Positions 28,714 to 48,971 of a stretch of 54,835 bases of DNA are shown here, in pieces (the stretch's first letter is position 1; the number at the start of each line of letters is the position of its first letter). Location of the stretch: positions 1 through 54,835 of the forward strand of contig JAGLEV010000076.1 of the NCBI GenBank assembly GCA_023144895.1, given 5' to 3'. Below the pieces are notes generated by a model. The model did no database searches, was not told the origin of the DNA, and was given only the letters and a program-made list of their open reading frames with translations. The position numbers and the translations under genes were made by a program. Source of the DNA: Thiotrichaceae bacterium (lineage in GTDB: Bacteria; Pseudomonadota; Gammaproteobacteria; Thiotrichales; Thiotrichaceae).

Positions 28714-30426
28714 CTATATTGTATATAAAAAATACAATATAAGCAGTAATTCAATACCTGCAACAAACTGCCAAAAGGCTAAAGGGTTACGTTGTAATAA
28801 TGGGGTTTTTTCTTTAACTAATAAGCGTTGATTGGGCTTACTAAGATCACAAATAAACTCTGAGAGTAGGGCATAACGTTTTTCAGGATCGGGGTGTGTT
28901 GCCTTTTTAATTGCCCCATCAATCCAACGGGGAACTGTAGGATTGTGCTGTTTAGCAGGGATATAATTAAAACGCTTTTTATGTGCTTTGAGTGGATCAA
29001 TTTCTCCATAAGGCAGTTTTCCTGTCAACATTTGATAGCAAATAACACCAATTGAGTAAATGTCGGAACGATTCGTGCCACTGTCTCCTTTAAAATATTC
29101 AGGGGCAGAATAGTTGGCAGTTCCTGCAATCAAGCTATGTTCTAAAATCGACTGTGCTTCTACTAGGCCCGCAATTTTAGTTGAGCCAAAATCAATAATT
29201 TTAAGCGTATTATTTTCATCCAGTAGAATATTATCAGGCTTGAGGTCTTGGTGAATCATTTCCATTCGATGCATCGCACGTAAGCCTTTGGCTATTTGTG
29301 AAATCGTACCACGTAGCTGGACAAGGCTAGGTCGAGGGTTATCTTGTATCCATTGTGCCAGTGTTTGACCTGAAATATATTCAACCACGGTATATAAAAA
29401 AGTACGTTGGCGACTAGGGCTATAGGTTTTGATTAAGTGTTCTGACTTTAAGCGTTTCCCCACCCATTCTTCATGTAGAAAACGGTCAATATAACCAGGG
29501 TCATCTTCAAAGTTAACGGATGGCGTTTTGATAACGACTTTGCGTGGTGGGTTGGAAAGCATGTCTTTTGCTAAATAGACTTGGCTACGAGAGGATGCCT
29601 GTAGTTCTCGAACAATTTTAAAGCCATCCAATATATTGCCACCTTGTAAATCAGGAGGGAAGGGAAGGCGTGTTAATTTTTCATAAATCTCTTTTTTATT
29701 TGCAGTGGGGAGAGTATCCAAACGCAGTAACTGACAAGTAATATTGTCATCGCTCTGGTTTGCCTTAGCCGCACTGACAATACTATCAGCAATGTCTTCA
29801 AAAATAATATTAGGCGCTTCAATTAACTCTTGAAGCTCTGTATCACCAACAAAATCATGAACACCATCGGTGCTAAGAAAATAAATATCATTTTGTTCTA
29901 CAGCAATTGAGCGATAATCAATATTGAGTTTAGTATCAATACCTAAAGCTCGGCTAAGAAACTCCTGACCCTTGCTAATCAAAATACGGTGGTCATGAGT
30001 AAGTTGCTCAAATTCTCCTTTGCGTAGGCGATATAGGCGACTATCACCAATATGAAACATATGCAAAGTCTGCGATTTAATGACAATAGCGGTAAAGGTT
30101 GTGACCATGCCTTTAGCGCTGTCATATTGTTTTTGACCTTGTGAATAGAGCCATGTATTCATTGCTGACATGACTTTGGTGACGGCTTTTTTGACTGACC
30201 ATGATTCGGAAGTGCTGTAATAATCATCAAGAAACATACGCACACTCATTTGGCTGGCTTCTTTGCCACCATCACTGCCACTCATACCATCGGCAATAGC
30301 GATAGTTAAACCCTTGCTTTCTAAAGTACTATCTTCAGGTATATAAGCGCCAAAAAAATCTTCATTATCCGTTTTAGGTCCAGCATCACTGGCTTGGCTT
30401 AAAGAAATCGCTAATTGTTTCGACAT
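28714..30426 (-). CDS. Bifunctional PP2C phosphatase / Ser-Thr kinase of the nitrate cluster
   Basis: One chain holds both activities. Residues ~1-240 are a PP2C phosphatase (DAGPKTDNEDFF, IADGMSGSDGG, HIGDSRLYRLR, STDGVHDFVGD, QSDDNIT). Residues ~265-535 are a Hanks kinase with KVVIKTP, HQDLKPDNILL, IIDFGSTK and SAPEYFKG. A C-terminal hydrophobic helix (FVAGIELLLILYFLYTI) anchors it, so both domains face the cytoplasm. It starts three bases after the upstream gene. The same kinase/phosphatase sits between the nitrate transporter and nirB in Pseudomonas clusters. A regulatory role in nitrate uptake is therefore likely, but its target is unknown. Confidence 0.92.
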   Translation of the reverse strand: MSKQLAISLSQASDAGPKTDNEDFFGAYIPEDSTLESKGLTIAIADGMSGSDGGKEASQMSVRMFLDDYYSTSESWSVKKAVTKVMSAMNTWLYSQGQKQYDSAKGMVTTFTAIVIKSQTLHMFHIGDSRLYRLRKGEFEQLTHDHRILISKGQEFLSRALGIDTKLNIDYRSIAVEQNDIYFLSTDGVHDFVGDTELQELIEAPNIIFEDIADSIVSAAKANQSDDNITCQLLRLDTLPTANKKEIYEKLTRLPFPPDLQGGNILDGFKIVRELQASSRSQVYLAKDMLSNPPRKVVIKTPSVNFEDDPGYIDRFLHEEWVGKRLKSEHLIKTYSPSRQRTFLYTVVEYISGQTLAQWIQDNPRPSLVQLRGTISQIAKGLRAMHRMEMIHQDLKPDNILLDENNTLKIIDFGSTKIAGLVEAQSILEHSLIAGTANYSAPEYFKGDSGTNRSDIYSIGVICYQMLTGKLPYGEIDPLKAHKKRFNYIPAKQHNPTVPRWIDGAIKKATHPDPEKRYALLSEFICDLSKPNQRLLVKEKTPLLQRNPLAFWQFVAGIELLLILYFLYTI

Positions 30427-31342: not shown

Positions 31343-32815
31343 TCACTTCATATCAATTAGCTGAACCGTGCCATCTTCAAGAGTCTCTACCATTTTATCA
31401 GCAGGCTCATCTAAAAATACAACAATCAACACAAAGACAACCACAGCCGCACAGCCAATTAATAAAAAGAACTGATTATAATCAACCAAAGAATTAGCCG
31501 TCAAAAAGATCACCGCACCGACATTACCAAAAGCTCCCGCCATACCAGCAATCTGCCCTGTCATACGACGTTGCACCAAAGGTACCATCGCATAAACCGC
31601 ACCAGAACCCGCTTTAGAGAAGATTCCACCAATAATGGTTAGTCCCACCACCATCCATAGTGACCACTCTTTACTGACCATACCTAGTGCAAGGAAGCTG
31701 AGTGCAATACCTGCAAAAGTAATGATTAAAATTAACCGACGACCAAAGCGGTCACTAAGCCAACCACCACCAGGGCGAGCGAATAGATTAATGACAGGAT
31801 AAATTCCCGCTAAGATTGCCGCACTGATTTTTGGCATATCGAACCATTCCACATAGAACATTGCAAGCATGGAAACGACGGCAAGTTCAGTACCAAAGGT
31901 AATGAGGTAAGCCCAGTCAAGAATAGCCACTTGTTTGAATTTATAGCGCTGCATCTTAGGAACAGGCTGAGTCAAGATATGACGATTAATCTGCCATATC
32001 TTGCTGGTTTGAATCATCAAAAGGACAACCAAAATACCATAAATGACATTGGTCATTAGCGTATCAATCAATGCCATACCCGCAGGAGAGAGCTTCCATG
32101 TTAGTACCGCCAAGGCTAAATACAAGGGAATATTCATCAGCATATAAAAGATAAGATCACCTTTACTTGTGACTTCCATTGCCCCTGTTTTCTTTGGCTT
32201 AAAATAAGTTGATCCCTTTGGCGTATTGGTCACAAGGAAGTAATACAACACACCATAGCTAATCGCTACAATACTGGCGATTGTAATCGCATAACGCCAG
32301 CCATCCGTTCCAGAAAACAGTCCAGCGATAAAGGGTAATGTCATTGCAGCACCCGCAGAACCAAAGTTACCCCAGCCACCATAAATGCCTTGGGCGACTC
32401 CTGTTTGACGTGCTGGAAACCACTCGCCAATCATACGTATACCGACAACAAAGCCTGCACCAATGAAGCCTGATAAGAAGCGAATTAAAGCAAGCTTCTC
32501 ATAACTATCAGCCCATGCAAAAGCAATACTAATCAGTCCACCAGAGATCAAAATACTACTGTACATCACCCGTGGACCAAAGCGGTCAACTAACATGCCA
32601 ACAATAATACGAGCAGGAATGGTCATGGCAACATTTAATATCAACAAGACCTTTGCTTGCTGATCTGTCAAACCCATTGCTTCTTTAATAAAGGGCATTA
32701 AAGGGCCAAGGCTGAGCCATACCAAAAAGCTCATAAAGAAGGCAAACCATGTGTAGTGCAATATACGAATATTACGCTTGCCAATATTAAGTAGATTAAA
32801 TGATGTTGTCGCCAT
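31343..32815 (-). CDS. Nitrate/nitrite MFS transporter (NNP family)
   Basis: A 12-helix major facilitator of 490 residues that imports nitrate for assimilation. Family signs are the N-terminal HYTWFAFFMSFLVWLSLGPL, the RIIVGMLVDRFGPRV loop, the nitrate signature FGSAGAAMTLPFIAGLF, and FGNVGAVIFLTANS late. The extra cytoplasmic loop between helices 6 and 7 (~residues 200-290) is lengthened. An AGGG site precedes the ATG. It is the first gene of a leftward operon with the coiled-coil protein and kinase/phosphatase. A consensus sigma-54 promoter lies ~50 bases upstream. Symbols narK/nasA are both used, so I give none. Confidence 0.93.
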   Translation of the reverse strand: MATTSFNLLNIGKRNIRILHYTWFAFFMSFLVWLSLGPLMPFIKEAMGLTDQQAKVLLILNVAMTIPARIIVGMLVDRFGPRVMYSSILISGGLISIAFAWADSYEKLALIRFLSGFIGAGFVVGIRMIGEWFPARQTGVAQGIYGGWGNFGSAGAAMTLPFIAGLFSGTDGWRYAITIASIVAISYGVLYYFLVTNTPKGSTYFKPKKTGAMEVTSKGDLIFYMLMNIPLYLALAVLTWKLSPAGMALIDTLMTNVIYGILVVLLMIQTSKIWQINRHILTQPVPKMQRYKFKQVAILDWAYLITFGTELAVVSMLAMFYVEWFDMPKISAAILAGIYPVINLFARPGGGWLSDRFGRRLILIITFAGIALSFLALGMVSKEWSLWMVVGLTIIGGIFSKAGSGAVYAMVPLVQRRMTGQIAGMAGAFGNVGAVIFLTANSLVDYNQFFLLIGCAAVVVFVLIVVFLDEPADKMVETLEDGTVQLIDMK

Positions 32816-32864: not shown

Positions 32865-32880
32865 AGCAATTTATGTGCCA
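32865..32880 (-). promoter_or_regulatory. Sigma-54 promoter of the nitrate transporter operon
   Basis: On the minus strand the sequence is TGGCAC-N5-TTGCT, an exact -24/-12 match. The invariant GG and GC have the correct spacing. The predicted start is near 32854, giving a ~39-base leader to the ATG at 32815. Confidence 0.85.
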
Positions 32881-33076: not shown

Positions 33077-33092
33077 TGGCATATTAATTGCT
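33077..33092 (+). promoter_or_regulatory. Sigma-54 promoter of the nirB operon
   Basis: TGGCAT-N5-TTGCT, with invariant GG (33078-33079) and GC (33090-33091) correctly spaced. One base departs from the consensus (T for C at the sixth position). The predicted start is near 33102, about 80 bases before the nirB ATG. Confidence 0.8.
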
Positions 33093-35685: not shown

Positions 35686-35994
35686 ATGAGTAACTGGATA
35701 GAAATCACTGCAATCAATGAAATCCCTGTATTAGGATCACGGGTTGTAGAAACAGGTGGTCAACGCATCGCTATTTTTCGCGGTAAAGAGGATGCTGTTT
35801 TTGCAATTAAAGACAGTTGTCCCCACAAGCAAGGCCCTTTATCACAAGGTATTATGCACGGTACATCAGTGACTTGCCCCCTGCATAACTGGAAAATCGA
35901 CCTCGCATCAGGTCAAGCATTAGGAGCGGATGAAGGCTGTACCAATGTCTACGACACTAAAATAGAAAATGGCATGGTTTTCCTACAGTTGTAA
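35686..35994 (+). CDS. nirD: Nitrite reductase (NADH) small subunit
   Basis: A Rieske-type [2Fe-2S] protein of 102 residues that partners NirB. The cluster motifs are CPHKQG (~residue 46) and CPLHNWKID (~residue 64), so C-x-H and C-x2-H ligands are present. It begins 83 bases after nirB, across a hairpin. Both belong to the same direction and presumably the same sigma-54 transcript. Confidence 0.95.
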   Translation: MSNWIEITAINEIPVLGSRVVETGGQRIAIFRGKEDAVFAIKDSCPHKQGPLSQGIMHGTSVTCPLHNWKIDLASGQALGADEGCTNVYDTKIENGMVFLQL

Positions 35995-36106: not shown

Positions 36107-38311
36107 ATGTTATTTGGTCGTAACAAGAAAAATCCAATTAAAATGGCAGATAAGCAAGTCAAAGATTGGAAATATGCAACCTGTGGCTATTGTTCCACAG
36201 GTTGCTCGATTGAAGTTGGTCTTAATGAAGAAGGTAAGCCTGTTGCTTCTCGTGGTGTGGGTGGTGCCGATGTGAATCGTGGTAAATTATGCCTCAAGGG
36301 TATTTTTGAGCATGAGTTATTTGATTCTGATGGGCGTGGAACCGAGCCTAAAATACGAGGTAGCTTTCGTGAAGACTGGCAAACAACGGATTGGGATACG
36401 GCTTTAGATCAAACCTTTGCTGATATTCGTCGCGTACAAGAAAAGTATGGGCGTGATTCCGTTGCCGTGATTTCAACAGGACAGATGCTGACTGAAGAAT
36501 TTTATACTTTAGGTAAGCTAACACGTGGCTTGATTGGTACCAATAATTACGATGGTAATACCACACTCTGTATGGCTTCAGCCGTTTCGGGCTATAAACG
36601 CTCATTTGGTTCTGATGGCCCTCCAGGATGTTATGAAGATTTTGATGAAACCAGTTTATTGATTGCTTGGGGTTCTAATTTACCTGAGCAACACCCCATT
36701 ATTTATTGGCGCATGAAGGAAGCACAAGAGAAAAGTGGCTTTCCACTGATTGTGGTTGATCCTCGTGTCACTATGTTGGCACAAAATGCAGATCGTCATT
36801 TAACCATTACACCGGGCACGGATGTCGTGTTAATGAACTCAATGATGTACGTGATTCTGGATGAAGGTTTGGAGGATCGTCGTTATATTGAAGCCAATAC
36901 CAATGGTATCGAAGAGCTGGAAGCCGAAGTTGCAAAATATGACCCTGTGACTGCGGCAAAAATCTGTGGGATTGATGAGGATAGTATTCGTGCTGTTGCG
37001 CGTCAGTTTGCAGGGGCTAAGACAGCAATGCAAATTTGGACGATGGGGATTAATCAAAGTACCCACGGTTCGGATGGTGTGGTCGGCATTAATAATTTAG
37101 CGTTAATTACGGGCAATATTGGTATTGCGGGTGGTACGAGTTTATCCATCACGGGGCAGTGTAATGCGATGGGGACACGTGAGTGGTCTTCTTGTTCTGG
37201 TTTACCCAATCATCGTTTTTTAGAAAATGCGCAAGACCGTGAAGATATTGCTAAATTTTGGAATGTTGACCCTGAGTTTTTCCCTAAAAAACGAGGCATG
37301 TTGCAAACGGATATTTATCAGGCAATGGAGCTGGGGCAGATTAAAGGGCTCTGGTTGATTGCGACTAACCCCATGACTTCTCTGCCAAATACGGCACGTA
37401 TTCGTCGCGCTATGGAGCAGTTAGAGTTCTGTGTTATACAAGATTGTTATGCTGATACTGAAAGCGCACAATATGGTACGGTTTATTTACCCGCAGGAAC
37501 ATGGGCAGAAAAAGATGGCGTAATGACTAATACCGAGCGCCGTATTAATGTCGTCAAACCTGTGGTTAAACCGCACGGTAATTCAAAACCTGATTTGTGG
37601 ATTTTCAACCGCATGGCGGAGCGCTTTAATGAAGAAGGCAAGGTTAATTTCTCTGAGAAAGCGTCCGATATTTTCTTAGAAATGGGTGTGTTATCAGAGG
37701 GGCGTTTATCGGATAACTCTGGAATGACTCATGCATTAATTGAGGAAAACCGTGGTATTCAGTGGCCTTATACTAAAATTCAGGCTGAAAATGGCGAGGC
37801 TCCTGCAAAGGGTGGTGTCCGTTTATATACTGAAGAGACGACTTTTCGTTATGCTGATGGCAAAGCGAAACTGATTCCTTTGCCCTTTATTGATAATAAT
37901 GAAGTACCTGATGATCGATTCCCATTTTGGCTAAATACAGGGCGCTTGATTGAGCACTGGCATGGGCGTACTAAGACGGGAAAATTAGGCAATAACAATA
38001 AATACAGTCCCATTCCTTTTGCAGAAATGAGCCCTGATGCCGCTAAAGAATTGGGTGTCGTTGCAGGAGATTATATTCGCCTGATCTCACGTCGTTCTGA
38101 TGCGATTGTAATGGCACAGTTAACTCATCGTGTGCCTAAGAATATGGTCTTTGTACCATTCCATTTTCATGACTGTGCTAATCGGGTTGTTCTTGGTTTG
38201 TTAGATCCTCATTCACGTCAGCCTGCTTATAAGCAATCCGCCGTTCAGATCGAAAGAATAGCGGATCAAGCAGGGGCAGCGAAAATGAGTATGGAAATGC
38301 GTAAATTCTAA
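36107..38311 (+). CDS. Assimilatory-type nitrate reductase, molybdopterin catalytic subunit
   Basis: A 734-residue molybdopterin oxidoreductase that reduces nitrate to nitrite. The N-terminal [4Fe-4S] site is CGYCSTGC with a later cysteine in LCLKG. The Mo ligand cysteine is in TTLCMASAVSGYKRSFG, as in Nap/Nas enzymes. The C-terminal dinucleotide-binding domain begins near FPFWLNTGRLIEHWHG. There is no twin-arginine signal, so it acts in the cytoplasm. The extra C-terminal [2Fe-2S] domain of Klebsiella NasA is absent; the length is that of cyanobacterial NarB. It is followed 15 bases later by an iron-sulfur/membrane subunit, an unusual partner. Confidence 0.93.
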   Translation: MLFGRNKKNPIKMADKQVKDWKYATCGYCSTGCSIEVGLNEEGKPVASRGVGGADVNRGKLCLKGIFEHELFDSDGRGTEPKIRGSFREDWQTTDWDTALDQTFADIRRVQEKYGRDSVAVISTGQMLTEEFYTLGKLTRGLIGTNNYDGNTTLCMASAVSGYKRSFGSDGPPGCYEDFDETSLLIAWGSNLPEQHPIIYWRMKEAQEKSGFPLIVVDPRVTMLAQNADRHLTITPGTDVVLMNSMMYVILDEGLEDRRYIEANTNGIEELEAEVAKYDPVTAAKICGIDEDSIRAVARQFAGAKTAMQIWTMGINQSTHGSDGVVGINNLALITGNIGIAGGTSLSITGQCNAMGTREWSSCSGLPNHRFLENAQDREDIAKFWNVDPEFFPKKRGMLQTDIYQAMELGQIKGLWLIATNPMTSLPNTARIRRAMEQLEFCVIQDCYADTESAQYGTVYLPAGTWAEKDGVMTNTERRINVVKPVVKPHGNSKPDLWIFNRMAERFNEEGKVNFSEKASDIFLEMGVLSEGRLSDNSGMTHALIEENRGIQWPYTKIQAENGEAPAKGGVRLYTEETTFRYADGKAKLIPLPFIDNNEVPDDRFPFWLNTGRLIEHWHGRTKTGKLGNNNKYSPIPFAEMSPDAAKELGVVAGDYIRLISRRSDAIVMAQLTHRVPKNMVFVPFHFHDCANRVVLGLLDPHSRQPAYKQSAVQIERIADQAGAAKMSMEMRKF

Positions 38312-38326
38312 ATAAGAGCTAATTTA

Positions 38327-40177
38327 ATGTTTAAAGTCCGTCAAGATGAACCCCAATATGCATTCCTTAATGACAAGGAATCAGCCACGCATAACCGTTA
38401 TGGAACACCCATTGATACGGTCGCAGAGCAGAGTGCTTTACGTGGTGAAAGTCTCAATATTAATGCGGATAGAGAGGTTGGTGAGAATCCCAATCGTTAT
38501 AAGCAACATGGGTTCTTTTTTACCGCTGATAATTGTATTGCTTGTCATGCTTGCGAAGCTGCCTGTAGCGAGAAGAATGATAATCCACCGCATATTGCGT
38601 TTCGCTCAGTAGGCTTTGTTGAGGGTGGTACATACCCTGACTATCGTCGCCAAAATATCTCAATGGCATGTAATCATTGTGATGACCCTGTGTGTTTGAA
38701 GGGTTGCCCTACACGAGCCTATACTAAGTTTGCAGAATATGGGGCAGTACTACAAGACCCTGATATTTGCTTTGGGTGTGGTTACTGTACATGGGTTTGT
38801 CCTTACAATGCACCACAGCTTGATCCTGTAAAAGGGCAGGTAACGAAGTGTAATATGTGTGTGGATCGGCTGGAAGTTGGCTTAAAACCTGCTTGTGTGT
38901 CAGCCTGTTTGGGTAAAGCATTAGAGTTTGGTGTGGTTGAAAATAAGCCAGAAGATCGTGATCAAGCAAAGACAAATATTCCGGGCTTTCCTGATCATAA
39001 TATTACCCATCCAAATATTCGTTTTCAGCAAACACGGACATTGAACCGCGATATGGTACGAGTGGATTCAACACCGATTAAATACCATCGTGATGATGAC
39101 AAAGGACAATATGAGTCTGAAGTTGATAAAAATGCTTTGCGTCAACGCTCATGGGGAATTAAGACTTTATTAAATTCTCATGAGAATGCTCATGCTATTT
39201 TTACCTTGTGTGTACAAGCGGTGATGGGGGCATTTAGCTTACTATTGATCGGTCAGTTATTTTCGATTACTGGGTTGGCAATATTACCTGAAATTTCAGG
39301 CTTTAGTTATATGCTTTGGGTGATGGTTGCCATTATGGGGATCGGCTTATTTAAGCTTAATATGCACTTGGGTAAACCGCATCGTTTTTATCGAGGTTTT
39401 TATAATTTACGGCATTCACCCGTGAGTCGTGAGATAGCGGGTGTGAGTGCTTTCTTTGGAGGGCTTAAAGGTGTGGCATTTTTCTCTCTCTTTAGTGGAG
39501 GATGGGCAGTATTACTTGGTGCTTTGTCTGCGGCGTTGGCAGCACTGGGGGTTATGGTTGGTGGTTACTATATGTATAAACTGTATCGCATTAAAGCCCG
39601 TCCATTTTGGGATCACTGGCAAACGGCGAGTAGCTTTGTTTCAACCATGTTAACTTTGGGAGCATTAATATTGGCTTTCTTTGTTTTAATCACAGGCAAT
39701 ATGGCTTCATTGCCACTACTGGGATCGGTTGTAGTCGTAGGGCTTCTACTCGAAGCTGTTGGGCTTTATCAACATAGTAAGGATTTAAAAGCAGGTAGCG
39801 GCGAAGGGCAAGCATCACATTATGATCAAACCACGCAGTTTGGTAAAAGTTATTATTTGCGTAATGGCTTAATTGTTATTAACGTATTGATGGCAATAGG
39901 ATTGATGTTTGCATCGGATATCACTGTCGTACTGGTAATAATATTGAGCCTTAGCATATTAGTTAGTGCTTATTTAGGACGCATTATTTTCTATACCGTC
40001 GTTATTCCTACGACTATGCCAGGTGCCTTTTTCTGGAAAAATAAAGGTTTTGTTGAACATGCAAGAGAGTCAGGTTTGGCTGATATGCAGCAATTGGGTG
40101 TTGCGTATGAACAGCATCATGCATTTGATACTGTGGCGCTAGTGAAGACAGTCAAAGAAGTGTTTGCTAAATCGTAG
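38327..40177 (+). CDS. Fused DmsB-like ferredoxin and DmsC-like membrane anchor
   Basis: A 616-residue fusion. Residues ~65-260 hold four [4Fe-4S] sites of the DmsB/NrfC type: CIACHACEAAC, CNHCDDPVCLKGC, CFGCGYCTWVC and CNMC with a distal C-x3-C. From ~residue 290 come about eight membrane helices of the DmsC type, with the signature stretch LNMHLGKPHRFYRGFYN and HSPVSREIAG. In DMSO reductase the two parts are separate proteins that move electrons from menaquinol to the catalytic subunit. By position this protein should do so for the nitrate reductase just upstream. No Tat signal is seen, so the iron-sulfur domain faces the cytoplasm. A 70-residue N-terminal extension is unexplained. Confidence 0.9.
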   Translation: MFKVRQDEPQYAFLNDKESATHNRYGTPIDTVAEQSALRGESLNINADREVGENPNRYKQHGFFFTADNCIACHACEAACSEKNDNPPHIAFRSVGFVEGGTYPDYRRQNISMACNHCDDPVCLKGCPTRAYTKFAEYGAVLQDPDICFGCGYCTWVCPYNAPQLDPVKGQVTKCNMCVDRLEVGLKPACVSACLGKALEFGVVENKPEDRDQAKTNIPGFPDHNITHPNIRFQQTRTLNRDMVRVDSTPIKYHRDDDKGQYESEVDKNALRQRSWGIKTLLNSHENAHAIFTLCVQAVMGAFSLLLIGQLFSITGLAILPEISGFSYMLWVMVAIMGIGLFKLNMHLGKPHRFYRGFYNLRHSPVSREIAGVSAFFGGLKGVAFFSLFSGGWAVLLGALSAALAALGVMVGGYYMYKLYRIKARPFWDHWQTASSFVSTMLTLGALILAFFVLITGNMASLPLLGSVVVVGLLLEAVGLYQHSKDLKAGSGEGQASHYDQTTQFGKSYYLRNGLIVINVLMAIGLMFASDITVVLVIILSLSILVSAYLGRIIFYTVVIPTTMPGAFFWKNKGFVEHARESGLADMQQLGVAYEQHHAFDTVALVKTVKEVFAKS

Positions 40178-43106: not shown

Positions 43107-46100
43107 TTAATCCCGATCAACTTCATAGATAAGATCAAAGCCTTGGTCAGTCCCCAATCCTGTTTGTCCTGAATCCGCTTGTAATGACCATGATTTATTG
43201 ATTTTATAATCGATAGCAACTTTATGAAAGTTATTAAAAAGACCCGTAATATAGCGAATATAAAATCGAGATCCTAAGTGCTTACCAATCTCTACCTTGC
43301 TCTTCTTATAGTCATTCGCTGTAATAATATTGACATCATCAAGACCAAAATTTTCCCCAATATTATTTAAGAAAGTACCACTCTGATTTAAACCTAATGA
43401 ACGTATAGCCTGTACTAAAACTCGTGTTTGATCGCCTGAGTTGTTACCTAGACTTTGCCCTGTAATTAAGTAACTTACTGCATCACTTTCAGAGAGTGCA
43501 GGGTCTGAAAATACAGAGGATATAGGCTGCTGTAATGTTCCTGCGAGATTAAGCCCTACCTTATGCTCATTGACTGAGCGAGTAGCACGAATATTAAGTC
43601 CAGGATTACTAATAGCACCATTAAAAATAAGAGCACCATGTTCAATGACTAAATTTTGTCCATAAGATCGGTATTGTCCATTAATAATATTTAAATTTCC
43701 ATGAGTGACCGTTACTTTGTTATTTTCAGTAATATGTAACTTTCCTTTAAGCTTTGATCGTAGTCCAAAGCCTTTAAAAGAAATATTGTTGCCCAAGGTA
43801 ATATGTACATTAGGGATAATTTGCAATGGGCTACCTTTTTTAACCTCTTCTTTAACTTTCTTTCTCTTCTCTGAAGCAAAGACAACATCATCTGATTCAG
43901 TAATGGATGTTTCAGGCAAGTCTTCGAATTGCAATTTTGCGTAGGGTATATGCAAGTTACCCGTTATAGAGGTGTTATAGCGGTTTATTTTAAGTTGTAG
44001 ATTAGGTGAAACTTTGGCAGAGGCTTGGGCGGTATTGATAAATTGTAAATTTTTACCCCTAAGTGAAAGAGTCGCATTCCAGTCATTAAGCTTTTTAATG
44101 ATCATTGTGCCTTTAATAGCAAGTTTGCCTTCACCTGTTTGAAGTGAGCCAGTGATGGAGCCATGATTAGGTCGATCTGTTTTGATTAGCAGGTTAATAT
44201 ACCGAAAATGAGTATTAACATCAGGAATACTAAACTGTCCATTAGTTAGCTTGATGGTACCTTGATAATGAGGCTTTGTGAGTCTGCCTTGGTACTTAAT
44301 ATCACTAGTGATTTTCCCTCTTAAACGGGTGATGTCAGGAAAAAACTCTTGTAACCAATACAGGTCTTTTACGGTAAACTGTGCCGTACCATTAATGCGA
44401 TGTTGGTTGAGTTGTTTTCCTAGGGTGATGGTTGCGCTACTTTTTAACTGACCTCGCTTGGTGACATCTAAGATGACTTCGGCTTGAATATGCTTGCCTT
44501 CAAAGTCAAGACGAATAGAGCCTTTTTGGTAGGCAACCTCGGTTTTACCATTATCACGAGACTTTATAATAACCTTGTCTTTAGATAAATTTAATTTAGC
44601 ATAGCCAAAATAAGCTTGACCTTGCTGTTTAATATCAAAATGTCCCGACGCATGACCAGGAAGCTGGATATTATCAGGAAGCCATTGTTTAAATTGTACA
44701 AAAGGTACATGGCTTAGTTTTCCTTTTGCACTAAAGCCATTCTTTCCCTGCCATCCAATGATGGCACACAAGTTGCCTCTAATAGGATTGCTAATACAAA
44801 TTTCAGAGGTTGAGATGCGTTTAGAGGAGAGATTAACTTGTGTTGCACGGGTTAGCTGCCATTGTCCTGTTGCGTCATGATGTAGCTTGACCTTTTGTAC
44901 TTGCCCCTGCCATTGTTGGTTACGCCAACCACCACGTGCAACAATATCTATTTTGCCAATAGCATGATTACCTTTACTGGTAATTTTTAATTGATGATGT
45001 TCTAAGCTACCCCCAATATTAAAGGTGGTATTATTTAAGTTTTGCTTAGCCAAAGTCATTCGTTTGGCGGTTCCTCTGAGGGTGAATTTTTTATTATTTC
45101 CTTTAAAATTAAGGCGTATATGTTTGAAGTAGGAGTCAGGGTGCTTGAGAGTGCTTAGGTCTAAAGTACCTTCTCCAGCGACAAACTGATTGATTTGTTG
45201 CCCTTTAAACTTTATATCTGCTGATCCTAGTTGATAATCTTGATAGCGAATCCCCTGTAAGTGAGCTTGAATATTACCAATCAAGCGTTTATTAGCGGCA
45301 AGTTTGCTATCAATAATGGTCAGAGTTCCTTGATCGATTTTAAGATCTTTACCTTTGAGATGATAGAATTGGATTCGACCCTTGCCCGCAGGAAGATAGC
45401 TTTTGCCAATTAAAGCACCCTTGTAATCCATCTTGACCGAACCGACTTGGTAGTTCTGATAGCGCACTCCTTTGAGCTGAGCATTAATTGCCCCTGTGAT
45501 CCCTGTTCGTGTTGATTGGCTATCCTTGAGAAAGACAGAGCCTTGTTGAATTTTTAGGTCTTTACTATTCAGCCCAGAGAATTGTATATTACCTTTACCA
45601 TTGGGGCGTTGTGTTTGTGTGTGAAAGCTACCATTAAAATCAAGGCTCGCATTAGCAATGTCATGTCCTTGATAATGTAAACCTTTCAGTGTCGCCTTGA
45701 CTGATCCAGCCAATTGGTCTTTTATTTTTTTGCCATCACGAATAATAATACTACCCTGTTTTATTTTCATGTCTTTACTGGATAGGTTGGAAATTTGGAT
45801 ACTGCCCTTGCCAGTGGGAATCTGTGTTTTTGTATTAAAGTTTCCTATAAAATCGACCGCTACCGAGCCTATTTTTTGCCCTTGATAGTTAACCCCCTTT
45901 AATGTTGCTTGAACCGAGCCGATTAAATGATCTTTTAGCTGTTTACCATCACGAATAACAAAGGTGCCTTGTTTTATTTTTATCTCTTTCGTTTTTAAAT
46001 TAGAGACTGTTACCTTGCCTTTGCCCACAGGAATCTTTGTTTTCGTATTAAAGCTTCCCGAAAACTGGACAGTGGCAGAACCGACTTGCTGCCCTTGATA

Positions 46101-48971
46101 ACTACCCCCTTTTACTGTGGCTTGAATGGAGCCAATGAAATGATCATTGATTTGTTTGCCATCATGAATAATAAACGTGCCCTGTTTGAGTTTTATGTCT
46201 TTCGTTTTTAAATTAGAGACTGTTACCTTACCTTTACCAACAGGGATTTTTGTTTTTGTATTAAAGCTTCCTGTGAATTTGACCTTAGCGGAACCGACTT
46301 GTTGCCCTTGGTAATCAACTCCTTCTAATGTTGCTTGAACGGAGCCAATAATATTATCTTTTAGTTGCTTAGCATCATGAATAATAATGGTGCCATGTTT
46401 AACTTTTATCTCTTTCGTTTTTAAGTTAGAGACCGTTACCTTACCTTTACCAACAGGTATTTTTGTTTTTGTATTAAAGCTTCCTGTGAATTTGACCTTA
46501 GCAGAACCAACTTGTTGCCCTTGGTAATTAACGCCTTCTAATGTTGCTTGAACAGAGCCAATAATATTATCTTTTAGTTGCTTACTATCATGAATAATAA
46601 TGGTGCCGTGTTTAACTTTTATCTCTTTCGTTTTTAAGTTAGAGACTGTTACCTTGCCTTTGCCAACAGGTATTTTTGTTTTTGTATTAAAGCTTCCTGT
46701 GAATTTGACCTTAGCAGAACCGACTTGTTGTCCTTGGTAATTAACGCCTTCTAGTGTTGCTTGAACGGAGCCAATAATATTATTATTTATTTGCTTACCA
46801 TCATGAATAGTCATGGTGCCGTGTTTAATTTTTATCTCTTTCGTTTTTAAGTTAGAGACTGTTACCTTACCTTTGCCAACAGGGATTTTTGTTTTTGTAT
46901 TAAAGCTCCCTATAAATTTGACCTTAGCTGAACCTGCTTGCTGCCCTTGATAATTAACCCCTTCTAGTGTTGCTTGAACGGAGCCAATGATATTATCTTT
47001 TATTTGCTTGCCATCATGAATAGTAATAGTGGCTTTCTTGGCTTTAATGTCTCCAGTCACTAAATCCTGAAGTTTTATTTTTCCTTTTCCTGTAGGGGAT
47101 TGGGTTTTTGTATTAAAACTCCCTGTAAACTCTACCGTAGCCGAACCGACTTGCTGACCTTGGTATTTAGCACCTGCCACTGTTGCCTGCATGGAGCCAA
47201 TAATATTATCTTTAATTTTCTTACCATCATGAATAGTAATAGTTGCATCTTTAATACTGACATCTTTACTGACTAAGTCATGAACTTGTATCTTTCCTTT
47301 ACCTATAGGAAGTTGAGTTTTCGTGTCAAAACTACCAGTGAAATCCATGGTAGCCGAACCGACTTGATGACCTTGGTATTGACCACCGTTGATATTGGCT
47401 TGAATAGAGCCAATGAGACGGTCTTTTAATTGTTTTATATTGCGAATATTAACCACGGCATGTTTAAGCTTAATATCTTTACCCTTTAGGTTGGCAAGCT
47501 CTATTGTCCCTTTTCCTTTAGGCTGCTGGGTTTTACTGTCAAAGCTACCCTTAAAATCAATCGTCGCCAAACCGAGTCGGTGATCTAGATAGCTAACACC
47601 CTTAAGTTTTGCTTTGAGCGATCCTATGAGTTGATTGTTTTCTAACCTGCCTTCATCAATATTAATCATGCCATCTATAATAATAAGATCTTTCGTTACA
47701 ATATTATGAAATTGTAAATATCCTGTCCCATAAGGTTGTTGTGTTGTCCCTTTGAGTGTCCCTTTGCCTTTAATGTCACCATAGAGAGTAGGGAAGAGCT
47801 GATTGATTTTTTTGGTGTCAATATCCCAACTGAGTTTAAAAGGCTCGGTAATACGACCATCAATTTTCAAATAATTATTCTGTGATTTTAGTTTTATTTT
47901 ATGGGCACTAAGGATGTGATCTTTTAGTTTAATCGTGCCACTGCCAGTAATATTTTTTTGATTAATTTTTCCATTAATATCAGTAAACTGACTTACAATG
48001 TCCCATTGCATAGAGTCATAGTAATACTTCGCTAATAATTGCGTTTTAAAGTTAAGTTCAGAGGGTAGTTCGGGCTTAAATTGATTCGCTTTAATCTTCT
48101 TTCCTTCAATAGCCAAATCAAAGACAAGTGCTGGTAACCAAGTGACATCACCCTGTAAATCAATATCTCCTTTTTTATTCTGAATCTGCATGGATTGAAT
48201 CGATACATGTTGATAGTCACCTTTCAGTTTCAGTTTGACTTTGTTTTTTCCAGTAGCAAATTCTTTCCAATCAACATCAGTATCCAGAGTGTAATCTGTC
48301 AGTGTGCCACCAATCGTTGCATTTCCTTTGATATCACCAATAAGAGGGTGCTTATAATTTACTGTTCCATGGCCACTCATTGCATGAGGCTGATTGAGTT
48401 GTAATTGAAAAGTCTCTACCGCAACATCCATGGGTTGGTGGTGAACATCAAGTTGTCCTATTAATGCCCCTGATTTTATTTTTTGATCAATAATAGAGAC
48501 ATTCACCGCCTGAAGATCATTTGCTTGGAAATAAATATCACCCAATGTATTTTTAATCAATAAACTATTGAGATTAAGACTTGAAATATGAACATTTAAA
48601 GGAATAGGGATATCAGGAATAATGACTTCCTTATCATCCTTTGTTATCGGTACGGTGATAATGAGTTGATTCGTGGAGAGGTCTGCTACCTGTATACCCT
48701 TTTTAATATAAGATAATTTACTCAGTTTTAGAGTCGTTTGTTTTAACTGTACATCGACTTCTGTTTCAGTATCATGCCAATGAATATCTTCAAATTCTAG
48801 CCCTGTTAGTATGCTACCCTTTGCACCCTTTAGCTCAAGACCCGTCTCTGTGTTGTTGATTAATTTACTGACCGTTTTAGTGCCTAGAGGGGTGCTAATG
48901 AGTAGGATAGCAATAATACAGAGCACGATACTCAGTAGCATTAAGTTGGCAAGAAGCTTAAATACCTTCAC
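43107..48971 (-). CDS. tamB: TamB, translocation and assembly module inner-membrane subunit, expanded
   Basis: An AsmA-like protein that spans the periplasm from an N-terminal inner-membrane helix (residues ~7-27) to TamA, and takes part in outer-membrane protein insertion and lipid transport. The C-terminal DUF490 domain is seen in the last ~400 residues (ALIFNGAISNPGLNIRATR, DPALSESDAVSYLITGQSLG). The protein is 1954 residues, against ~1260 for E. coli TamB. The excess is ~850 residues of twelve tandem 71-residue beta repeats (~residues 415-1265). The ATG overlaps the tamA stop by four bases, so the two are coupled. Confidence 0.92.
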   Translation of the reverse strand: MKVFKLLANLMLLSIVLCIIAILLISTPLGTKTVSKLINNTETGLELKGAKGSILTGLEFEDIHWHDTETEVDVQLKQTTLKLSKLSYIKKGIQVADLSTNQLIITVPITKDDKEVIIPDIPIPLNVHISSLNLNSLLIKNTLGDIYFQANDLQAVNVSIIDQKIKSGALIGQLDVHHQPMDVAVETFQLQLNQPHAMSGHGTVNYKHPLIGDIKGNATIGGTLTDYTLDTDVDWKEFATGKNKVKLKLKGDYQHVSIQSMQIQNKKGDIDLQGDVTWLPALVFDLAIEGKKIKANQFKPELPSELNFKTQLLAKYYYDSMQWDIVSQFTDINGKINQKNITGSGTIKLKDHILSAHKIKLKSQNNYLKIDGRITEPFKLSWDIDTKKINQLFPTLYGDIKGKGTLKGTTQQPYGTGYLQFHNIVTKDLIIIDGMINIDEGRLENNQLIGSLKAKLKGVSYLDHRLGLATIDFKGSFDSKTQQPKGKGTIELANLKGKDIKLKHAVVNIRNIKQLKDRLIGSIQANINGGQYQGHQVGSATMDFTGSFDTKTQLPIGKGKIQVHDLVSKDVSIKDATITIHDGKKIKDNIIGSMQATVAGAKYQGQQVGSATVEFTGSFNTKTQSPTGKGKIKLQDLVTGDIKAKKATITIHDGKQIKDNIIGSVQATLEGVNYQGQQAGSAKVKFIGSFNTKTKIPVGKGKVTVSNLKTKEIKIKHGTMTIHDGKQINNNIIGSVQATLEGVNYQGQQVGSAKVKFTGSFNTKTKIPVGKGKVTVSNLKTKEIKVKHGTIIIHDSKQLKDNIIGSVQATLEGVNYQGQQVGSAKVKFTGSFNTKTKIPVGKGKVTVSNLKTKEIKVKHGTIIIHDAKQLKDNIIGSVQATLEGVDYQGQQVGSAKVKFTGSFNTKTKIPVGKGKVTVSNLKTKDIKLKQGTFIIHDGKQINDHFIGSIQATVKGGSYQGQQVGSATVQFSGSFNTKTKIPVGKGKVTVSNLKTKEIKIKQGTFVIRDGKQLKDHLIGSVQATLKGVNYQGQKIGSVAVDFIGNFNTKTQIPTGKGSIQISNLSSKDMKIKQGSIIIRDGKKIKDQLAGSVKATLKGLHYQGHDIANASLDFNGSFHTQTQRPNGKGNIQFSGLNSKDLKIQQGSVFLKDSQSTRTGITGAINAQLKGVRYQNYQVGSVKMDYKGALIGKSYLPAGKGRIQFYHLKGKDLKIDQGTLTIIDSKLAANKRLIGNIQAHLQGIRYQDYQLGSADIKFKGQQINQFVAGEGTLDLSTLKHPDSYFKHIRLNFKGNNKKFTLRGTAKRMTLAKQNLNNTTFNIGGSLEHHQLKITSKGNHAIGKIDIVARGGWRNQQWQGQVQKVKLHHDATGQWQLTRATQVNLSSKRISTSEICISNPIRGNLCAIIGWQGKNGFSAKGKLSHVPFVQFKQWLPDNIQLPGHASGHFDIKQQGQAYFGYAKLNLSKDKVIIKSRDNGKTEVAYQKGSIRLDFEGKHIQAEVILDVTKRGQLKSSATITLGKQLNQHRINGTAQFTVKDLYWLQEFFPDITRLRGKITSDIKYQGRLTKPHYQGTIKLTNGQFSIPDVNTHFRYINLLIKTDRPNHGSITGSLQTGEGKLAIKGTMIIKKLNDWNATLSLRGKNLQFINTAQASAKVSPNLQLKINRYNTSITGNLHIPYAKLQFEDLPETSITESDDVVFASEKRKKVKEEVKKGSPLQIIPNVHITLGNNISFKGFGLRSKLKGKLHITENNKVTVTHGNLNIINGQYRSYGQNLVIEHGALIFNGAISNPGLNIRATRSVNEHKVGLNLAGTLQQPISSVFSDPALSESDAVSYLITGQSLGNNSGDQTRVLVQAIRSLGLNQSGTFLNNIGENFGLDDVNIITANDYKKSKVEIGKHLGSRFYIRYITGLFNNFHKVAIDYKINKSWSLQADSGQTGLGTDQGFDLIYEVDRD
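45177..47729 (-). repeat. Twelve tandem 213-bp repeats in tamB
   Basis: The period is 213 bases (71 codons), checked by the spacing of the same GTTAGAGAC-type phrase at 46212, 46425, 46638 and 46851. Units begin with G(K/T)G and include HDGKQ..GSVQATLEGV and GSFNTKTKIPVGKG. Units 5-9 are close to identical at DNA level; the outer ones have diverged. The pattern is that of recent central amplification. Confidence 0.93.

What the first reader, a model, noticed from the sequence alone, without database searches (positions are those of the whole stretch)
36107..40177. Assimilatory-type nitrate reductase joined to a quinol-linked DmsB-DmsC fusion
A cytoplasmic Nas/NarB-like catalytic subunit is followed 15 bases later by a single protein that fuses a four-cluster DmsB-like ferredoxin to a DmsC-like membrane anchor. 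Known assimilatory enzymes take electrons from NADH, ferredoxin or flavodoxin. Here quinol is the logical donor, which would couple assimilation to the respiratory chain and blur the Nas/Nar border. The neighbouring nirBD and nitrate transporter argue for an assimilatory role. I regard this as the strongest candidate for an under-described system in the window.
Basis: partly seen in the sequence, partly recalled or inferred. Interest (0 to 1): 0.8.

Follow-up and report, generated by a model that had tools for sequence, protein, structure and literature searches.

The report
Quinol-linked assimilatory nitrate reductase
Two neighbouring genes appear to encode a nitrate reductase that feeds nitrogen into the cell but takes its electrons from the membrane's quinol pool, through a fused iron-sulphur and membrane-anchor protein; the pair is widespread in sulphur- and methane-oxidising bacteria and I found no published description of it.

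Summary
It is not unique to this genome. At least 527 genome stretches encode relatives of the fusion protein, and the catalytic partner was found in every FUS-bearing genome tested (19 of 19 among relatives, 6 of 6 in a phylum sample) and in none of the others. The catalytic subunit is neither a canonical Nas nor Nap. It forms its own clade, with Nas/Nap active-site residues and not those of formate dehydrogenase. It has no Tat signal and no C-terminal [2Fe-2S] domain. All 16 cluster cysteines and the DmsC quinol-site His and Glu are invariant. The charge pattern puts the ferredoxin side in the cytoplasm, opposite to E. coli DmsABC. Sigma-54 and NtrC-like sites precede nirB far above chance, with no FNR boxes. 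In relatives lacking the pair, ordinary NasA occupies the same nirB-nirD slot. Best reading: a cytoplasm-facing, probably non-electrogenic quinol:nitrate oxidoreductase for nitrogen assimilation. This is a new variant of a known kind; activity and quinol coupling are inferred, not shown.

The parts
36107..38311 (+). Catalytic subunit 'NAS' (734 aa), bis-MGD nitrate-reductase-type oxidoreductase with conserved N-terminal extension MLFGR-x-KKNPI-x-IADK and no Tat signal
36182..36292 (+). [4Fe-4S] (FS0) motif of NAS: Cys26, Cys29, Cys33, Cys62, followed by Lys64
   Evidence: sequence and alignment
36569..36574 (+). Mo-ligand Cys155 followed by Met156 (Nas/Nap type; Fdh rows have His or Gln there)
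38327..40177 (+). Fusion subunit 'FUS' (616 aa): DmsB-like four-cluster ferredoxin joined to DmsC-like membrane anchor
38534..38908 (+). Sixteen cluster cysteines (residues 70-194), all invariant in 72 representatives
39185..40015 (+). Eight transmembrane helices (residues 287-563) with NrfD/PsrC fold
39365..39433 (+). Predicted quinol site: His347 (= DmsC His65) to Glu369 (= DmsC Glu87), with Ser364 (= Ser82)
   Evidence: role of DmsC His65 from PMC8076601
33167..35602 (+). nirB, assimilatory nitrite reductase large subunit (likely start ATG 33182)
35686..35994 (+). nirD, Rieske-type small subunit
33077..33091 (+). Sigma-54 promoter-like site TGGCATATTAATTGC reading into nirB-nirD-NAS-FUS
32866..32880 (-). 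Divergent sigma-54 promoter-like site TGGCACATAAATTGC reading into the nitrate transporter gene
31343..32815 (-). NarK-family nitrate/nitrite transporter
28714..30426 (-). PP2C phosphatase/Ser-Thr kinase fusion; homologues beside the operon in 28 named loci

Best explanation
The two genes encode a two-subunit, cytoplasm-facing quinol:nitrate oxidoreductase used for nitrogen assimilation. The fusion protein sits in the membrane with its DmsB-like half in the cytoplasm. Quinol is oxidised in its DmsC half near His347/Glu369, and electrons pass through four [4Fe-4S] clusters to the [4Fe-4S] cluster and Mo-bisMGD of the catalytic subunit, which reduces nitrate to nitrite. NirBD then makes ammonium, and a NarK-type transporter brings nitrate in. 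The operon is switched on by NtrC and sigma-54 when nitrogen is short. Because both quinol oxidation and nitrate reduction should lie on the cytoplasmic side, the reaction is probably not energy-conserving; its benefit would be sparing NADH, which is costly for sulphur oxidisers and methanotrophs. Shown by computation: anatomy, pairing, invariant residues, topology bias, regulation signature and slot exchange. Inferred: nitrate as substrate, quinol as donor, complex formation, lack of electrogenicity, physiological benefit.
For: Pairing: 19 of 19 relatives with FUS have NAS and 0 of 38 without it do (one NAS is cut at a contig edge); 6 of 6 against 0 of 392 in 398 Pseudomonadota; it persists even in G050, where the genes lie on different contigs. 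Substrate: 14 against 3 diagnostic residues favour Nas/Nap over Fdh. Assimilation: sigma-54 sites upstream of nirB in 30 of 46 dereplicated loci (0.45 expected), NtrC-like palindromes in 17 (0.43), FNR in 0; two of the window's three sigma-54 matches lie divergently in the 351-bp nirB/narK gap; ordinary NasA takes the place directly after nirB-nirD in seven of eleven FUS-lacking relatives and lies near nirB in three more. Donor: 16 of 16 cluster Cys and DmsC His65, Ser82, Glu87, Arg271 invariant in 72 of 72; NrfD/PsrC fold (Z 19.1 to menaquinone-bound PsrC); NAS lacks the Fer2_BFD domain present in all four ordinary NasA tested. Side: 14.6 K+R on the DmsB side against 0.58 opposite, 72 of 72; no Tat signal in NAS.
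Against: No activity, quinol or membrane data exist. The AU test does not reject a NAS-FUS plus Fdh clade (p = 0.214), and the best NCBIfam model by bits is Fdh-alpha, although below cut-off and also first for the ordinary NasA controls. The Fe-S half of the structure model is poor (pLDDT mostly below 50), so the cluster relay rests on sequence. Two draft genomes with the pair show no NirB. The NAS-FUS gap varies, up to 1.4 kb. The topology is from charge bias only.
Confidence: 0.8

Rival explanations
1. The complex is respiratory: quinol oxidation by nitrate for energy or electron disposal, with NirBD doing dissimilatory ammonification.
For: Quinol linkage is typical of respiration; the DmsB/DmsC parts come from respiratory enzymes; NirBD can serve ammonification; RavA-ViaA, linked to respiratory complexes in E. 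coli (PMC10585395), lies downstream in seven loci.
Against: Sigma-54/NtrC-like signature and no FNR boxes; slot exchange with ordinary NasA; two NapA already in the genome; predicted cytoplasmic quinol side would give no proton motive force.
Confidence: 0.12
2. The catalytic subunit is a membrane-linked formate dehydrogenase that happens to lie beside nirBD.
For: Fdh-alpha is the highest-scoring NCBIfam model (511 bits, below its 666 cut-off); AU p = 0.214 for a joint clade.
Against: Cys-Met in place of Cys/Sec-His and 13 more Nas/Nap-specific residues; ordinary NasA controls score Fdh-alpha first as well; nitrogen operon context and regulation.
Confidence: 0.03
3. The fusion protein is not the electron donor of NAS but serves another enzyme; the two genes are merely neighbours.
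For: Gap between the genes varies and they are unlinked in G050.
Against: Perfect co-occurrence even when unlinked; NAS lacks the electron-entry domain of ordinary NasA; N-terminal extension of NAS found in 72-73 of 76 orthologues, a candidate docking element.
Confidence: 0.05

Closest known systems
Assimilatory nitrate reductase Nas/NarB (NasA, NasC)
   Same: Cytoplasmic, Cys-ligated Mo-bisMGD with one [4Fe-4S]; Nas/Nap active-site residues; nirBD operon slot; NtrC/sigma-54 signature
   Different: Own clade at 31-38% identity; no C-terminal BFD [2Fe-2S] or flavin donor domain; conserved N-terminal extension; paired with a membrane ferredoxin-anchor fusion
DmsABC and other complex iron-sulphur molybdoenzymes
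   Same: Four-cluster DmsB-like module and eight-helix DmsC-like anchor with the same His/Glu quinol residues
   Different: Catalytic subunit from the Nas/Nap/Fdh side of the superfamily; B and C fused; predicted cytoplasm-facing; no Tat signal
SoeABC sulphite dehydrogenase
   Same: Works like it in orientation: cytoplasmic molybdoenzyme (PMC6397845) with four-cluster and DmsC/NrfD-type subunits
   Different: Opposite electron flow, other catalytic family, separate B and C genes; FUS is closer in sequence to E. coli DmsB/DmsC than to this genome's Soe-like proteins
NarGHI used for assimilation
   Same: Quinol-linked, cytoplasmic nitrate site, can feed NirBD (role proposed in PMC11636981 and PMC6474228)
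   Different: Asp ligand, haem-b NarI and periplasmic-side quinol site (general knowledge); unrelated anchor

Membership tests
Canonical Nas/NarB | Cys Mo-ligand and Nas/Nap active-site residues | tested here: met
   14 shared positions absent from Fdh
Canonical Nas/NarB | Cytoplasmic, no Tat signal | tested here: met
Canonical Nas/NarB | Falls inside the Nas clade | tested here: not met
   Separate clade 100/100; Nas 93/92 without it; NasC model 447 of 1100 bits. Cyanobacterial NarB was not in the tree.
Canonical Nas/NarB | Electron entry by C-terminal BFD or flavin domain or a NasB partner | tested here: not met
   No Fer2_BFD or flavin domain in NAS. NADH-type NasB gene found beside the pair in only a few loci.
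Canonical Nas/NarB | Use of free ferredoxin or flavodoxin (NarB type) | not testable with these tools
   needs biochemistry
Canonical Nas/NarB | Nitrate reductase activity | not testable with these tools
   needs enzyme assay
NapA | Tat signal and membership of the Nap clade | tested here: not met
Formate dehydrogenase (cytoplasmic) | Cys/Sec followed by His at the active site | tested here: not met
   Met in all 25 NAS-FUS rows, His in 4 and Gln in 1 of 5 Fdh
Formate dehydrogenase (cytoplasmic) | Tree position | tested here: inconclusive
   Apart from Fdh, but AU p = 0.214 for a joint clade
DmsABC | Four-cluster B subunit with 16 Cys | tested here: met
DmsABC | NrfD/DmsC-type anchor with quinol residues His65, Glu87 | tested here: met
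DmsABC | DmsA-type, Tat-exported catalytic subunit facing the periplasm | tested here: not met
NarGHI | NarG-type catalytic subunit with haem-b NarI | tested here: not met
   narG model 46 of 1084 bits; anchor is DmsC-type

The most novel reading that the evidence does not exclude
A third lineage of Cys-ligated nitrate reductase, beside Nas and Nap, that acquired a DmsBC-type quinol module and turned it to face the cytoplasm, forming a dedicated, non-energy-conserving quinol:nitrate reductase for nitrogen assimilation. It would be the usual assimilatory enzyme of many sulphur-oxidising, methanotrophic and symbiotic Gammaproteobacteria, in which NADH is costly.
Probability: 0.7. Interest if true: 0.75.

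Novelty: new variant of a known kind. Interest (0 to 1): 0.66.

Why it matters
[quoted passage not shown] this pair is a widespread exception. It would link nitrate assimilation directly to the quinol pool in methanotrophs (Methylomonas, Methylobacter, Crenothrix), sulphur oxidisers and animal symbionts (Solemya, Lamellibrachia). That changes electron budgets for these organisms and offers a candidate where papers have assigned assimilation to NarGHI. The gene pair would also be a better marker than 'nasA' or 'dmsB' annotation alone. Culturable hosts such as Methylomonas methanica make it directly testable.

Tried and rejected
Fdh-alpha top hit taken as function: rejected after ordinary NasA controls gave the same ranking. 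Kinship of FUS to the genome's own Soe-like subunits: E. coli DmsB/DmsC score higher. An apparent stop inside FUS of G393 proved to be an artefact of the alignment start; the ORF is intact. G050 seemed to lack NAS; it is on another contig. Adjacent nirB missing at some loci: it was found elsewhere in most of the genomes checked. No plasmid record holds NAS at 60% or FUS over 80% of its length. Foldseek gave no hit under E 0.001 for the whole model because the Fe-S half is poor; the membrane half matches by VIA-align. AU tests of NAS-FUS with Nas or Nap did not finish. Ten literature searches (eight on this topic) found no description of the pair; the library holds only open-licence papers.
Full report
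What is there. The window is contig C78 of a 2.64-Mb draft genome; its named relatives are Thiotrichaceae MAGs. At 36107-38311 lies a 734-aa molybdopterin oxidoreductase and, 15 bases on, at 38327-40177, a 616-aa protein. The second protein carries a DmsB-like ferredoxin (residues 60-206) and a DmsC domain (285-557) in one chain. nirB and nirD lie upstream on the same strand. A NarK-type transporter and a PP2C/kinase fusion lie divergently. Below, NAS is the catalytic subunit and FUS the fusion.

Distribution. FUS has full-length orthologues in 19 of 57 relatives (in two of them split over contigs). These include Methylomonas methanica, Methylobacter, Crenothrix polyspora, Cycloclasticus, Sedimenticola, Sulfuricella, and symbionts of Solemya velum and Lamellibrachia. 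NAS lies directly upstream in nearly every locus long enough to show it. In 398 Pseudomonadota genomes, NAS at 63% identity or more occurs in six, FUS in the same six, and the next NAS homologue is at 39%. In the relatives it is 19 of 19 against 0 of 38 (in G001 the NAS gene is cut by a contig edge). In G050 the genes are on different contigs, yet both are present. These genomes are related, so the counts are not independent events.

Which enzyme. The best NCBIfam model by bits is Fdh-alpha (511), ahead of NasC (447); neither reaches its cut-off. Ordinary 880-aa NasA proteins give the same order, so this does not discriminate. In a 60-row tree NAS-FUS is one clade (100) placed with Nas and Nap (91) and apart from Fdh (99). 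In a 30-row careful tree it is a distinct clade (100/100) beside Nas plus Nap. An AU test did not exclude a joint clade with Fdh (p = 0.214). The active site settles the matter better: 14 conserved positions are shared with Nas and Nap and absent from Fdh, against 3 the other way. Among them is the Met after the Mo-ligand Cys, where Fdh has His. The block GNTTLCM[AS]SAVSGYKRSFGSDGPPG is present in 75 of 76 distinct NAS sequences. NAS differs from ordinary Nas in lacking the C-terminal Fer2_BFD domain and in carrying an N-terminal extension beginning ML[FL]GR, found in 73 of 76.

The fusion protein. All 16 cluster cysteines are invariant in 72 representatives. So are the equivalents of E. coli DmsC Thr14, His65, Ser82, Glu87 and Arg271; His65 of DmsC is required for quinol oxidation (PMC8076601). 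AlphaFold gives eight confident membrane helices (pLDDT mostly 80-95), but the Fe-S half is poor. The membrane half aligns with alternative complex III ActC (Z 22) and with menaquinone-bound PsrC (Z 19.1, 241 residues, rmsd 4.9). Positive charge lies on the ferredoxin side in 72 of 72 (14.6 against 0.58 K+R), a bias E. coli DmsC does not share in the same columns (3 against 3). NAS lacks a Tat signal that Nap and DmsA show. The complex should therefore face the cytoplasm.

Role. Upstream of nirB, sigma-54 sites occur in 30 of 46 dereplicated loci (0.45 expected from other windows of the same loci), NtrC-like palindromes in 17 (0.43), both in 14, and FNR boxes in none. The window has three sigma-54 matches in 54.8 kb (0.16 expected), two of them divergent in the nirB/narK gap. 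In eleven relatives lacking FUS, ordinary NasA follows nirB-nirD directly in seven and lies near nirB in three; in one no nirB was seen nearby. Within the window's family the two kinds of nitrate reductase were not seen in one genome; G044, of another family, has both. Twelve of 14 genomes checked for NirB had it, two drafts did not. The genome also holds two NapA, so periplasmic nitrate reduction is served separately.

Mechanism. Quinol is oxidised in the DmsC half, electrons pass four clusters to the NAS [4Fe-4S] and Mo-bisMGD, and nitrate is reduced in the cytoplasm. Quinol-to-nitrate transfer is downhill (general knowledge). With both half-reactions on the cytoplasmic side, no charge separation is expected, unlike NarGHI. 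The benefit would be sparing NADH in organisms that must make it by reverse electron flow; this is inference from the host list.

What is known. Wells et al. state that no member of the Fdh/Nas/Aio/Nap clade is associated with four-cluster or anchor subunits (PMC7331816). I found no paper describing the pair, within an open-licence library. Quinol-linked assimilation by NarGHI has been proposed (PMC11636981; PMC6474228), so the idea is not new, but a dedicated enzyme of this make-up appears to be. It works like SoeABC in orientation and like DmsABC in its donor module, and belongs to neither.

Limits. No activity is shown. Cyanobacterial NarB and Bacillus NasC sequences were not in the trees. 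The expectation for regulatory sites comes from random windows, not from other promoters. Topology rests on charge alone.

Noticed in passing
L060:11919-15182, L085:11049-14444 and five other loci: RavA-ViaA-like genes lie directly downstream of the fusion gene in seven loci; in E. coli this pair is tied to respiratory complexes, so it may be an assembly factor here.
   Followed up: partly
L063:4699-5052, L074:11905-12258, L126:11863-12201: A DsrC/TusE-family gene follows the fusion gene directly in about ten loci; its link to nitrate reduction is unexplained.
   Followed up: partly
L069:5012-6300; L071:3853-7758: Methylococcales loci carry an E. coli-type NirB (about 35% to the window's), a NirD and a PhzF-like gene in front of NAS, as if the nitrite reductase had been exchanged while NAS-FUS was kept.
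   Followed up: partly
window 28714-30426 (-): PP2C phosphatase/Ser-Thr kinase fusion conserved beside the nitrate operon in 28 named loci, and near ordinary NasA too; possibly a regulator of nitrate uptake.
   Followed up: partly
window 43107-48971 (-): Very long (1954 aa) ORF whose sequence shows many near-identical internal repeats (e.g. IIGSVQATLEGVNYQGQQVGSAKVKFTGSFNTKTKIPVGKGKVTVSNLKTK); it looks TamB-like.
   Followed up: no
L042:9900-11720 and L182 (G050): NAS and FUS genes on different contigs; FUS here lies beside a MobB-like (molybdenum cofactor) gene.
   Followed up: partly
L037:4630-9510, L076:7729-15896, L127:7739-15252: Loci holding both an ordinary NasA and NAS-FUS in one cluster, with a NasB-like reductase in L076 and L097; possible switching between NADH and quinol as donor.
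   Followed up: partly
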